A stretch of DNA of 64,000 nucleotides, taken from the NCBI GenBank assembly GCA_036374135.1, contig DASUUK010000024.1, positions 81,305 to 145,304 on the forward strand, in the 5' to 3' direction. The notes beneath the pieces were generated by a model that saw only the letters and a list, made by a program, of their open reading frames with translations, had not been told where the DNA came from and made no database searches. This DNA comes from Euzebyales bacterium (GTDB lineage: Bacteria; Actinomycetota; Nitriliruptoria; Euzebyales; JAHELV01). Below are positions 30,716-35,357 of this stretch, piece after piece (positions within the stretch are counted from its first letter, which is position 1; each line of letters begins with the position of its first letter). The position numbers were made by a program, and so were the translations under genes.

Positions 30716-30870
30716 AAAGGTAGAGATCTACAAAAGAGTCGTGATCGCAACGATCCTAGCGAACTGGCGGCGGATCGCCGCCCGGCCGCGCGTCGGGTCG
30801 GACGGTTCGGACCTGGCCCGCCGGTCAACGCTGGCAGCGGGAGCTCATCCACCGACGAGAGGACCGTGCC
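30716..30870. promoter_or_regulatory. divergent promoter region with GATCG-CAA-CGATC palindrome
   Basis: 155 bases between the sulfate gene (minus) and the GH13 gene (plus). The part nearest the sulfate gene is clearly AT-richer (aaaaaggtagagatctacaa at 30714-30733). A perfect inverted repeat GATCG/CGATC with a CAA centre lies at 30743-30755. The position fits a repressor or activator site for sulfate activation. Confidence 0.5.
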
Positions 30871-32463
30871 GTGAGCGGGCCGCAGTGGTGGCGCGATGCC
30901 GTGCTGTACCAGATCTACCCACGCAGCTGGGCGGACGGCAATGGTGACGGCATTGGTGACCTGCCCGGCATCACCGCGCGGCTCGACCACCTGGCCTGGC
31001 TCGGCGTCGACGGGCTGTGGCTGTCGCCGATCTACCCGTCGCCGATGGCCGACTTCGGCTACGACGTCGCCGACCACACCGACGTCCACCCCGACTTCGG
31101 CACGCTGGCCGACCTCGACGCGCTGGTCGCCGCCGCACACGAGCGCGACCTGCGGGTCATCCTCGACTTCGTACCGAACCACACGTCGGATGGGCACGCG
31201 TGGTTCCGGGCGTCGCGATCGTCCCGGGACGACCCGCGCCGCGACTGGTACGTCTGGCGTGACCCGGCGCCGGACGGAGGGCCGCCGAACAACTGGATGA
31301 GCCGGTTCGGTGGCGGTCCCGCCTGGACGTTCGACGAGCCGACCGGACAGTGGTACCTGCACACGTTCCTGCCGGAGCAGCCGGACCTGAACTGGCGGAA
31401 CCCCGAGGTGCGCCGGGCGATGTGCGACGTCCTGCGCTTCTGGATGCGCCGCGGCGTCGACGGGTTCCGCGTCGACGTCGCGCACCGCATCGTCAAGGAC
31501 GAGCGGCTGCGCGACAACCCGCCGGACCCCGACCACCGCGACGGCATGCCCGGGTACCGCCGCGTCACCGAGCACTACTCGCGCAACTGGCACGAGGTCC
31601 ACGAGATCCACCGGCTGCTGCGGCGCACGGTCGAGGAGTTCGACGATCCGCCACGGCTGCTCGCGGGTGAGGTCAACCTGGACCCGCCCGAGCTCGTCGC
31701 CTACTACGGCGACGACGACGAGCTGCACCTGCCGCTGAACTTCCACACCATCGTCGATCTGTCGTGGACCGCCACCGACCTGGCCGGGCTGGTCGACGAC
31801 GTCGAGGACACCACTCCGGCGTTCGCCTGGCCGTCGTGGATCCTGTCGAACCACGACAAGTCCCGGTTCCCGACCAGGACCGGTCGGCGCTTCGCGCGCC
31901 AGGCGCTCGTGTTCCTGCTGACGGCGCGCGGCACGGCGGTGCTGTACTACGGCGACGAGCTCGCGATGGGCGACGCCGACGTGCCGCCGGACCGCATGCA
32001 GGATCCGTGGGGCCGCCACGTACCCGACGAGAGCCGCGATCCCGAGCGCACGCCCATGCCGTGGGATGGCTCGCCCAACGCCGGGTTCTGCCCGCCGGAC
32101 GTCACGCCGTGGCTGCCGCTGACCGACGACGCGATGACGCGCAACGTGGACGCGCAGTGCGACGACCCCGCGTCCGAGCTGCACCTGGTGCGCGACCTGC
32201 TGTCGCTGCGGCGTGCGCGATCGTCGTTGCGCACGGGCGCGTACGAGCGGCTCCACGTCGACGACACCGTGTTCGCCTACGTGCGGCGCGACGGTGACGA
32301 GCACACCGTGGTCGCCATGTCGTTCGCCGACGCGCCCCGCACGCTGACGCTCGGCGGCCAGCACGACGTGCTGCGCTCGACCGACGCCGACCGGACCGGC
32401 AGCGTCGGCGGCGAGCTTTGGCTGGGCCCGTGCGAAGCGGTGGTCCTGGCGGCGGGCGACTGA
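30871..32463 (+). CDS. GH13 alpha-glucosidase / oligo-1,6-glucosidase type
   Basis: 530 residues of glycoside hydrolase family 13. [20 protein letters not shown] and [19 protein letters not shown] place it with alpha-glucosidases, trehalose synthases and oligo-1,6-glucosidases. Catalytic residues: nucleophile Asp near 202 in [11 protein letters not shown], acid Glu near 267 in LAGEVNL, and Asp near 329 in SNHDKSR. There is no signal peptide, so it acts inside the cell on short alpha-glucosides. The GTG at 30871 has AGAGGA upstream. The next gene starts 3 bases after the stop, so they share a transcript. Confidence 0.93.
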
Positions 32464-32466
32464 CCG

Positions 32467-33750
32467 ATGGACACCGGCGGATCCGCCGACGCAGACGACG
32501 GGCGGACGCGTACGTGGGTGATCGACGCCTTGAACGTGGTCGGGACGCGACCGGACGGCTGGTGGCGGGACCGGTCCGGTGCGGTTGCCCGGATCGTCGA
32601 CGAGATCGTCCGGTGGCGCGCGACGATCAACGACGACGTGCTGGTCGTCGTCGACGGCCACCCCTCGGGACGGGTCCGCGAGGGCATGTGGTACGGCGTG
32701 AAGGTCCGGCTCACCCACACCAGCCGACCCGACGCGGCTGACGACGAGATCGCCACGACCGTGGCCGCCGCGACCGATCCCACCGCCATGGTGGTCGTGA
32801 CTGCGGACCGACGGCTGCGGGCACGCGTGGAGGCCTGCGGCGCTGCGGTCGAGGGCCCGCGCCGGTTCCTCACACGCCTCGCGGACGTTGCGGTCCGTCG
32901 CGAGGACCGGGTGGTGCTCGCCCACTTCGGCGTCGACGAGTCGGCGCTGCTCGGGCGCGGTGGAGAGGCACGGGTGTACGGGCTCGACGACGAGCGGGTG
33001 GTGCGCCTGTCACACCCGGGGACCGATCTCGCCATGCTCCGCCAGCGGCGACGCCTGCTCGACGACCTCGCCGGCGGCGACATCGGCGTCGCGCTCCCCA
33101 GGGTCCTCGAGCAGCACGTCATCGCGGGCCGCGGCGTCAGCGTGGAACGGCGCCTGCCGGGTCGCGACGCCCTGGACGTGCTCGATGCGGACGGCACCGA
33201 CCGGGCCGCGCTGGTGCGCGACCACCTGGAGGTGGCCCGCCGCATCGCCACACTGCCGTGCCCCCTGCGCCGGTTCGGGCCGATCATCGGCGACGCGCCG
33301 ACGGCGGAGACGTTCCGCGCGTGGTCGGTCGCGCGCCTGGGCGCCCGACTGGCGCGGGGCGGGCCGGCGTTCGCCGGGATCGATCCGGTGGCCGTGACCG
33401 ACGACCTGCTCGCCGTCCTGCCGCCCGCGGACCGCCCGGTCGTGGCCCACCTCGACGCGTTCCTCGGCAACATGCTCGCCGACGGCGATCGGATCAGTGC
33501 CGTGCTGGACTTCGGCGGCCTGACCGCCGGAGCCATCGCCGATCTCGACCCGCTGCTCGCAGTCGCCTACCTGGCGCCCGAGATCACACCGACCGCGGTC
33601 GACGCCGACCGCGCGACCGCGCGGGCGTGGGTCGCTGACGTCGGCCTCGACCGTGCCGTGGTCGCCGCACGGCGCTGGGCCGCCACCATGTGGGCCGGCG
33701 AACCTGACGACCAGCCCCTCAGGCAGTGGTGCCGCCGCGTGCTGAGCTGA
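32467..33750 (+). CDS. fusion of YacP-type NYN domain and APH-fold kinase domain
   Basis: 427 residues with two domains I recognise separately. Residues about 15-140 are an NYN/PIN-like nuclease of the YacP type: WVIDALNVVGTRPDGWWRDR, then LVVVDGHPSG, ADDEIATT and VVVTADRRLRARV. The four acidic positions D20, D63, D92/D93 and D114 suggest an intact metal centre. Residues about 155-427 are an aminoglycoside-phosphotransferase-fold kinase: GRGGEARVYGL as glycine loop, VAHLDAFLGNML with catalytic D330 and N335, and VLDFGGL with metal-binding D348. It follows the GH13 gene by 3 bases. Possible jobs are phosphorylating a sugar, a nucleoside or RNA ends; none is shown. No linker stop or frameshift is seen. 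Confidence 0.85.
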   Translation: MDTGGSADADDGRTRTWVIDALNVVGTRPDGWWRDRSGAVARIVDEIVRWRATINDDVLVVVDGHPSGRVREGMWYGVKVRLTHTSRPDAADDEIATTVAAATDPTAMVVVTADRRLRARVEACGAAVEGPRRFLTRLADVAVRREDRVVLAHFGVDESALLGRGGEARVYGLDDERVVRLSHPGTDLAMLRQRRRLLDDLAGGDIGVALPRVLEQHVIAGRGVSVERRLPGRDALDVLDADGTDRAALVRDHLEVARRIATLPCPLRRFGPIIGDAPTAETFRAWSVARLGARLARGGPAFAGIDPVAVTDDLLAVLPPADRPVVAHLDAFLGNMLADGDRISAVLDFGGLTAGAIADLDPLLAVAYLAPEITPTAVDADRATARAWVADVGLDRAVVAARRWAATMWAGEPDDQPLRQWCRRVLS

Positions 33751-33780
33751 CGCGTGGGCGACTCGTGCCGTACGGCGCGG

Positions 33781-33861
33781 CGGTCGTCAGCCGACGAGGT
33801 CGCGGGCGGGGCGCGCAGGCCGGTCGTCAGCCGACGAGGTCGCGGGCGCGGGCGCGCAGGC
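33781..33861. repeat. tandem duplication of about 40 bases at the end of the kinase-like gene
   Basis: Positions 33781-33820 and 33821-33861 are near-identical copies. The first 28 bases match exactly and the rest differ by a one-base gap and one change. The second copy contains the stop codon and last codons of the minus-strand gene ending at 33827; the first copy repeats them downstream. Confidence 0.85.
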
Positions 33862-35293
33862 GGTCGAGGTGCCCATCGTCCGATGTCGCGCGCTCGTGCA
33901 GCCTCGACGTCCGCTCCGCCAGGTCGGCGTCCTGGAACGACCACGCGAGCTCGCGCACCTGATCCAGGCGCTCGCGTGCCGCAGCGGGCGTCCTCTCATC
34001 GGCGCGGATGGGGCGCGCCGCGCCCCAGTCGACGTGCACCAGGCCCTCGCCGGTCACCACGAAGTTGGCCGCGTGCCAGTCCGGGTTGTCGATCCCCAGC
34101 TCCTCGCACGCCAGGTGGTGCACGAGCATCTGGTCGTAGCGGTCGGCCGTCAGCTCCGCCGGACGCTCGACCGCCAGCTCCGCCAGCGTCGGCCCCTGCT
34201 CGAACGGCTCGACGGTGAGCCCGAGCGCCGTCGAGAAGCGCACGTCGCGTCCGAATGCGGCATTGAGGCGTTCGACCGCAGTCGATCCGACCACCTGCGC
34301 GATGTCCGCCCGCGCCGTCACCATGCGGCCCTCGCCCGTCGCGCGCGGCCAGTTCTCCGGCGAGCCCTCGTGGGTGCGGACGCCCAGGTCGATCTCGTGC
34401 TCGGGTTCCGGTGCGGGCTGCTTGACGACGACGCCCAGGCCCTCGGCGAGCAGGATCGTGCTGCGGCGGTGCCGACCCATGATGTACTCGCCCTTGAGCA
34501 ACAGCTCGACGCCGAGCTCGTCGGCGTGACGACGCTGCAGGTCGCGTGCCGCGCGCTCGTCGGCCACGCGGTCCTCCGCGGCGGCGGACCGGCGCGACAG
34601 CTCCAGGCGATACAGCTGTTCGATCAGTTCGTCGTGGGCGAGCATGGGGTGCAGCGATCCGCCGAGGGGTCCGTCACCGCGCACCGCGGCCACGAGATCG
34701 TCGATCAGGCTGTCGCGCCCGTCCGCCCTGGCAGCGCGGAGCGCCCCTGCCGACGCGCGCAGCGTCGCCACGCCGTCGGGCAGCTCCTGCGCCAGCCGGC
34801 CGGAGACCAGGACGGGATCGACGAGCGCGGAAGCGATCGTGTCGCCGTAGTCGACCAGCGTCTCGCCGGCACGCAGGACGGGATCGTCGTCATGCCCGTC
34901 GCCGGCGATGCCCATCGCGTCGAACCACAGCGGGGCCCAGCCGCCCAGGTTCCGTTCGAGGAACCGATCGTCGTCATCGAGGAAGTCGCGCGGCACCAGC
35001 CGGTCGGTCCGACTGAAGCCGACGTGCGCCATGGCGTCGTCGGTCGCGAGCACGGTCCGCACCGCCACGTCAGGCTCGTCGTCGAGCGCCATGAGCTCGG
35101 CCAGCCATCCGGCGCGCACCGCGGCCGGCGGACGCTGCTCGATCACTGCGATCGGTGCGCCCCGGGCGGGCACCCGCCAGTCGCGGATGAACCCGCTGAC
35201 GTCCGGGCGGCTCAACGGCACCGCGACGAGTGCGAAGTGGAGGCGCGGCAGATCGGGTGTCGGAGATCTGTCGGTCATCTCACCACTGACCAT
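33827..35293 (-). CDS. kinase-like protein of unknown family
   Basis: 488 residues. The N-terminal 200 residues are acidic and unfamiliar, with many Trp and Asp. Residues about 250-470 look like a protein-kinase/APH fold: GEYIMGRHRRSTILL could be a nucleotide loop, VVVKQP supplies a Lys, NPDWHAANFVV near 404-414 resembles the catalytic loop with Asp, His and Asn, and GLVHVDWGAAR supplies the metal Asp. I recognise no named family. The ATG at 35293 has GGGAG 11 bases upstream; an ATG at 35278 is also possible. It converges on the NYN-APH gene, placing two kinase-fold proteins tail to tail. Confidence 0.75.
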   Translation of the reverse strand: MVSGEMTDRSPTPDLPRLHFALVAVPLSRPDVSGFIRDWRVPARGAPIAVIEQRPPAAVRAGWLAELMALDDEPDVAVRTVLATDDAMAHVGFSRTDRLVPRDFLDDDDRFLERNLGGWAPLWFDAMGIAGDGHDDDPVLRAGETLVDYGDTIASALVDPVLVSGRLAQELPDGVATLRASAGALRAARADGRDSLIDDLVAAVRGDGPLGGSLHPMLAHDELIEQLYRLELSRRSAAAEDRVADERAARDLQRRHADELGVELLLKGEYIMGRHRRSTILLAEGLGVVVKQPAPEPEHEIDLGVRTHEGSPENWPRATGEGRMVTARADIAQVVGSTAVERLNAAFGRDVRFSTALGLTVEPFEQGPTLAELAVERPAELTADRYDQMLVHHLACEELGIDNPDWHAANFVVTGEGLVHVDWGAARPIRADERTPAAARERLDQVRELAWSFQDADLAERTSRLHERATSDDGHLDRLRARARDLVG

Positions 35294-35357
35294 GCAGCGA
35301 AGGGCTCCCGGCCGTCAGGAGCGCAGCCGGCCGCGGCTGCGCGGTCACGCTACCCGC

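What the first reader, a model, noticed from the sequence alone, without database searches (positions are those of the whole stretch)
32467..33750. YacP-type NYN nuclease fused to an APH-fold kinase
Residues 15-140 carry a full set of NYN acidic residues (D20, D63, D92/93, D114), and residues 155-427 carry a kinase catalytic loop (H328, D330, N335) and metal Asp (D348). I know the two domains only as separate proteins. Coupling an RNase-like domain to a small-molecule or RNA-end kinase suggests RNA processing or repair, or a toxin/antitoxin-like activity. The adjacent GH13 enzyme alternatively suggests a sugar kinase whose NYN part is regulatory.
Basis: partly seen in the sequence, partly recalled or inferred. 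Interest (0 to 1): 0.75.

Follow-up and report, generated by a model that had tools for sequence, protein, structure and literature searches.

The report
One-off nuclease–kinase gene fusion
One actinobacterial gene really does join an RNA-cutting-type domain to a small-molecule-kinase-type domain, but no second example turned up in about 425 related genomes or about 120 related genes, so it looks like a local gene fusion in a variable metabolic cassette rather than a new RNA-processing system.

Summary
One 427-codon ORF (32467-33750, +) encodes a YacP-type NYN domain (Pfam PF05991, residues 19-143) and an APH-type kinase domain (PF01636, residues 162-360), both above curated cut-offs. The NYN half belongs to an actinobacterial, normally standalone family marked by RPDGWWRDR; it keeps the acidic residues, is homologous to B. 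subtilis Rae1 and is modelled confidently. The kinase half keeps H328/D330/N335/D348; its only good relative found is a standalone gene. An indel error is excluded: neither other frame has a stop near the junction. A GAGGA box before GTG149/GTG150 suggests the kinase was, or still is, started separately.

The fusion was seen only here: not in 65 other genomes of the class, in 396 others sampled across the phylum, or in about 120 NYN-family ORFs. The gene sits in a variable cassette: absent in one congener, deleted in another; in a genome of another family its two flanking genes lie end to end without it.

Best reading: a lineage-specific fusion of two ordinary enzymes that probably act independently. 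Functional coupling (RNA repair, toxin/antitoxin, sugar kinase with NYN regulator) has no comparative support. No biochemistry was tested.

The parts
32467..33750 (+). NYN-APH fusion gene, 427 aa
32521..32895 (+). NYN_YacP domain (residues 19-143), Rae1-like
32548..32574 (+). RPDGWWRDR motif (residues 28-36), hallmark of the standalone NYN family
   Evidence: R28, P29, G31, W32, W33, D35, R36 invariant in 49 sequences; D30 and R34 at least 90%
32902..32916 (+). Junction: GAGGA box (32902-32906) and in-frame GTG149 (32911) and GTG150 (32914), possible internal start of the kinase
   Evidence: the only such box before any of 29 in-frame ATG/GTG/TTG codons of the ORF
32950..33546 (+). APH-type kinase domain (residues 162-360)
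33448..33471 (+). Kinase catalytic loop HLDAFLGN (H328, D330, N335)
33508..33510 (+). Metal-binding Asp D348 (DFG)
30871..32463 (+). GH13 alpha-glucosidase-type gene directly upstream (3 nt gap)
   Evidence: PF00128, E 1.2e-117; homologues in 58 of 66 genomes of the class
33827..35293 (-). Convergent 488-aa gene, no Pfam family; carries a DxxxxN and D kinase-like pattern by eye; same neighbour of GH13 in G045
30716..35357 (.). Variable cassette between the ATP-sulfurylase/APS-kinase gene and the IMPDH-type gene; missing in G003, mostly deleted in G001

Best explanation
It is a lineage-specific fusion of two normally separate proteins: an RPDGWWRDR-type NYN protein (about 120-150 aa, Rae1/YacP-like, predicted metal-dependent RNase) and an APH-type kinase of about 280 aa (predicted ATP-dependent phosphorylation of an unknown small molecule). 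The gene lies between a GH13 gene and that gene's convergent partner in a variable metabolic cassette and is probably co-transcribed with GH13. The fusion most likely arose by loss of the NYN stop codon in front of a closely following kinase start; the GAGGA-GTG site at the junction may still give some separate kinase. The two domains most likely work independently. Shown: architecture, conserved active-site residues, homology, absence elsewhere, empty and deleted sites in congeners. Inferred: both catalytic activities, co-transcription, stop-loss origin, independence of the domains.
For: Both domains above cut-off in one frame. Relatives of each half are standalone: NYN ORFs end 0-22 residues after the domain apart from L073 and a few partial alignments; the kinase relative in G071 is standalone and that genome has no NYN match. 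Fusion seen in no other genome of the class (66) or of the phylum sample (397). The other two frames have no stop between 32801 and 33394, so no indel artefact. SD-like box only at the junction. Cassette empty in G003, mostly deleted in G001; flanking pair without the fusion in G045.
Against: It is the only member of this NYN family in the genome and its invariant residues are kept, which would also fit selection on the fused form. Whether the gene was gained here or lost in G045 cannot be decided. The kinase substrate is unknown and the kinase fold could not be modelled.
Confidence: 0.62

Rival explanations
1. Ligand-gated device: the APH domain binds or phosphorylates a small molecule (sugar, nucleoside, antibiotic) and thereby switches the NYN RNase, or the NYN part regulates the kinase.
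For: One chain, both active sites kept; directly behind a GH13 gene.
Against: No recurrence of the pair as fusion or as neighbours; the GH13 gene occurs in most genomes of the class without it.
Confidence: 0.12
2. RNA processing or repair enzyme: the NYN part cuts RNA and the kinase part phosphorylates the RNA end.
For: Both a nuclease-type and a kinase-type domain in one protein.
Against: The kinase is APH-type, with weak best matches to aminoglycoside and macrolide phosphotransferases; no ligase or other RNA-repair gene among the neighbours scanned.
Confidence: 0.05
3. Toxin/antitoxin-like module, the kinase part holding the nuclease part in check or the reverse.
For: NYN belongs to the PIN-like superfamily, which includes toxins (PMC11346440).
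Against: No PADLOC hit; no small partner gene at the locus; the standalone NYN relatives have no constant neighbour.
Confidence: 0.04
4. Kinase with a passenger: only the kinase is used, and the NYN part is a non-functional leader.
For: No NYN match in two of three congeners, so the NYN function is dispensable; the kinase could be made alone from GTG149/150.
Against: The residues invariant in the NYN family are all kept.
Confidence: 0.1
5. Artefact: two separate genes joined by a base error in the assembly.
For: The junction looks like two abutting genes (SD-like box and GTG); one genome only.
Against: Indels excluded. Of the junction codons 130-152 only GAG146 is one substitution from a stop, so a very particular error is needed.
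Confidence: 0.05

Closest known systems
Rae1/YacP of Bacillus subtilis (PDB 5MQ8, 5MQ9); NYN_YacP, PF05991
   Same: Homologous NYN domain with the same acidic set; best Foldseek match of the model
   Different: Rae1 lacks the RPDGWWRDR motif and any kinase domain
Standalone actinobacterial RPDGWWRDR NYN proteins (e.g. L002, L083, L101)
   Same: 35-53% identical over the NYN domain, same invariant residues
   Different: No kinase; they end 0-22 residues after the domain
Standalone APH-type kinase of G071 (L116)
   Same: 30% identical over the whole kinase half, same catalytic residues, same Lys-to-Arg change
   Different: No NYN domain in front; different gene neighbours
APH(3') and macrolide 2'-phosphotransferases, PF01636
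   Same: Same superfamily, HxD...N...D catalytic set
   Different: Far below the family cut-offs (24.6 against 205 bits for APH(3')); substrate cannot be inferred
NYN run-on into a GNAT gene in Dehalococcoidia (L073)
   Same: Same NYN family, in frame with a small-molecule-modifying enzyme, SD-like box and GTG at the junction
   Different: Other partner and phylum; its AGGAGG box suggests the GNAT is started on its own

Membership tests
NYN_YacP (Rae1-like) | Family profile match | tested here: met
   PF05991 above cut-off; Rae1 at 2.5e-9 by profile
NYN_YacP (Rae1-like) | Active-site acidic residues | tested here: met
   D20, D92/D93, D114; set described in PMC11346440
NYN_YacP (Rae1-like) | PIN-like fold | tested here: met
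   pLDDT 87-98 over residues 11-140; Foldseek best match Rae1
NYN_YacP (Rae1-like) | RNase activity, ribosome-dependent cleavage | not testable with these tools
   needs purified protein
APH-type kinase (PF01636) | Family profile match | tested here: met
   54.2 bits against cut-off 23.2
APH-type kinase (PF01636) | Catalytic HxD, Asn and metal Asp | tested here: met
   H328, D330, N335, D348
APH-type kinase (PF01636) | ATP-binding Lys and alpha-C Glu pair | tested here: inconclusive
   Lys replaced by Arg as in several relatives, Glu not evident in the alignment
APH-type kinase (PF01636) | Phosphotransfer to a small molecule | not testable with these tools
   needs purified protein
Aminoglycoside resistance enzyme APH(3') | Score over the NCBIfam cut-off | tested here: not met
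   24.6 bits against 205
Toxin-antitoxin or defence system | Match to a known system, small partner gene | tested here: not met
   no PADLOC hit; flanking genes are GH13 and a 488-aa convergent gene
RNA-end kinase | Polynucleotide-kinase (P-loop) domain | tested here: not met
   only APH and NYN_YacP in Pfam up to E 1

The most novel reading that the evidence does not exclude
A selected allosteric or bifunctional enzyme in which a small-molecule kinase domain controls a Rae1-like RNase in the same chain, linking metabolite status to RNA cleavage.
Probability: 0.1. Interest if true: 0.65.

Novelty: new variant of a known kind. Interest (0 to 1): 0.3.

Why it matters
The pair NYN_YacP + APH appears undescribed: three term searches of the held paper library gave nothing and no second case was found in the genomes searched. 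Its main value is as a clean example of a gene fusion in a variable cassette, with empty and deleted sites in congeners. The more useful lead may be the widespread RPDGWWRDR NYN family itself, a probable RNase family common in Actinomycetota for which no functional paper turned up here. If the two domains proved coupled, it would be a new way of tying metabolite state to RNA decay.

Tried and rejected
Indel artefact: rejected, no stops in the other frames near the junction. Conserved operon of the NYN family: gene clustering around about 80 loci gave no constant neighbour. APH genes beside standalone NYN genes: one unrelated APH-like gene and one protein kinase among over 100 loci. Kinase family in viral contigs and whole protein in plasmids: nothing. 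Wider kinase relatives by a two-sequence profile: only remote APH proteins, most matched over the catalytic region alone. The 33827-35293 protein against the kinase profile: not significant. Rfam and tRNA scans around the gene: nothing. Two papers on Rae1 and on PIN-domain classification are not in the library.

Full report
Observation. The ORF at 32467-33750 (+) reads without interruption for 427 codons. Pfam finds NYN_YacP at residues 19-143 and APH at 162-360, both above cut-off and in one frame. In the NYN family D20 and D114 are invariant and D92/D93 nearly so. The corresponding three-aspartate set is the active site described for the CRISPR-associated NYN RNase (PMC11346440).

NYN half. 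The best relatives are standalone proteins, mostly 120-180 residues, in Nitriliruptoria, Acidimicrobiia, Solirubrobacterales, mycobacteria, nocardiae and a few Chloroflexota. They share an RPDGWWRDR motif. A profile of 49 members finds Rae1/YacP of B. subtilis in the PDB at 2.5e-9. The domain was modelled with pLDDT 87-98 over residues 11-140 and Foldseek returned Rae1 first. RNase activity is a reasonable prediction but is not shown.

Kinase half. It is APH-type with an intact catalytic loop and metal Asp; the ATP-binding Lys is Arg, as in several relatives, and the alpha-C Glu is not evident. NCBIfam gives only weak APH(3') matches; a profile of the two closest kinases weakly hits macrolide 2'-phosphotransferases and an APH(3') in the PDB. 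The only full-length relative is a standalone gene in G071, 30% identical; that genome gave no NYN match. This half could not be modelled.

Is the fusion real? The other two frames have no stop between 32801 and 33394, so a one-base indel cannot recreate an NYN gene that ends where its relatives end, 0-22 residues after the domain. Reading codons 130-152, a wrong base in GAG146 is the only simple artefact left. The gene lies on a 236-kb contig whose genes on both sides of the cassette match a congener at 86-90%. Among 29 in-frame ATG/GTG/TTG codons of the ORF only GTG149 and GTG150, at the junction, have a Shine-Dalgarno-like box, which they share. This points to a formerly, or still, separate kinase start.

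Is it recurrent? Not in what could be searched. In 66 genomes of the class and 397 of the phylum (the samples overlap, about 425 genomes in all) the fusion was seen only in the window's genome; 79 of the 397 had some match, mostly to the NYN part alone. Of 128 NYN ORFs held (four are copies of the window gene and some others are duplicates), only the window gene has an APH tail; one other, in L073, runs in frame into a GNAT gene. APH genes do not tend to neighbour NYN genes, and NYN genes have no constant neighbours.

Where it sits. The gene follows a GH13 gene by 3 nt and is convergent with a 488-aa gene that has no Pfam family. In G045, a genome of another family, the orthologues of these two flanking genes (71% and 62% identical) lie end to end, about 20 nt apart, with nothing between. 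In congener G003 the ATP-sulfurylase/APS-kinase and IMPDH-type genes that flank the cassette are only about 215 bp apart. In congener G001 a GH13 remnant is followed almost directly by the IMPDH-type gene; everything between window positions of about 31905 and 35355 is missing. The NYN-APH gene is thus part of a variable, dispensable cassette; whether it was gained here or lost in G045 is not decided.

Interpretation. The simplest account is the fusion of two ordinary enzymes, probably by loss of a stop codon between closely spaced genes, the domains acting independently. Functional coupling is possible but has no comparative support, and the RNA-repair and toxin/antitoxin readings have evidence against them. 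This is a genuine but isolated new domain combination.

Noticed in passing
window 33827-35293 (-): 488-aa protein without Pfam or PADLOC match; NPDWHAANFVV followed by HVDWG looks by eye like a divergent APH-type catalytic loop and metal Asp without the usual His. It sits beside GH13 in G045 too (62% identical), there close to glycerol-kinase-like and dihydroxyacetone-kinase-like genes.
   Followed up: partly
L073:6001-6930: In a Dehalococcoidia genome the same NYN family runs in frame, without a stop, into a GNAT-like acetyltransferase; an AGGAGG box and a GTG lie at the junction.
   Followed up: partly
window 33781-33851: 31-nt direct repeat, spacing 40, one copy covering the end of the 33827-35293 gene and one lying just beyond it: a small tandem duplication beside the 3' end of the NYN-APH gene.
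   Followed up: no
L217:5901-6894: In a congener the GH13 gene is a remnant (about residues 5-345 with an internal gap) joined almost directly to the IMPDH-type gene.
   Followed up: yes
L002-L081, NYN genes: A widespread actinobacterial NYN family with an invariant RPDGWW-DR core and no constant gene neighbours; 11 of 49 members also match DUF188 (YaiI/YqxD) weakly.
   Followed up: partly
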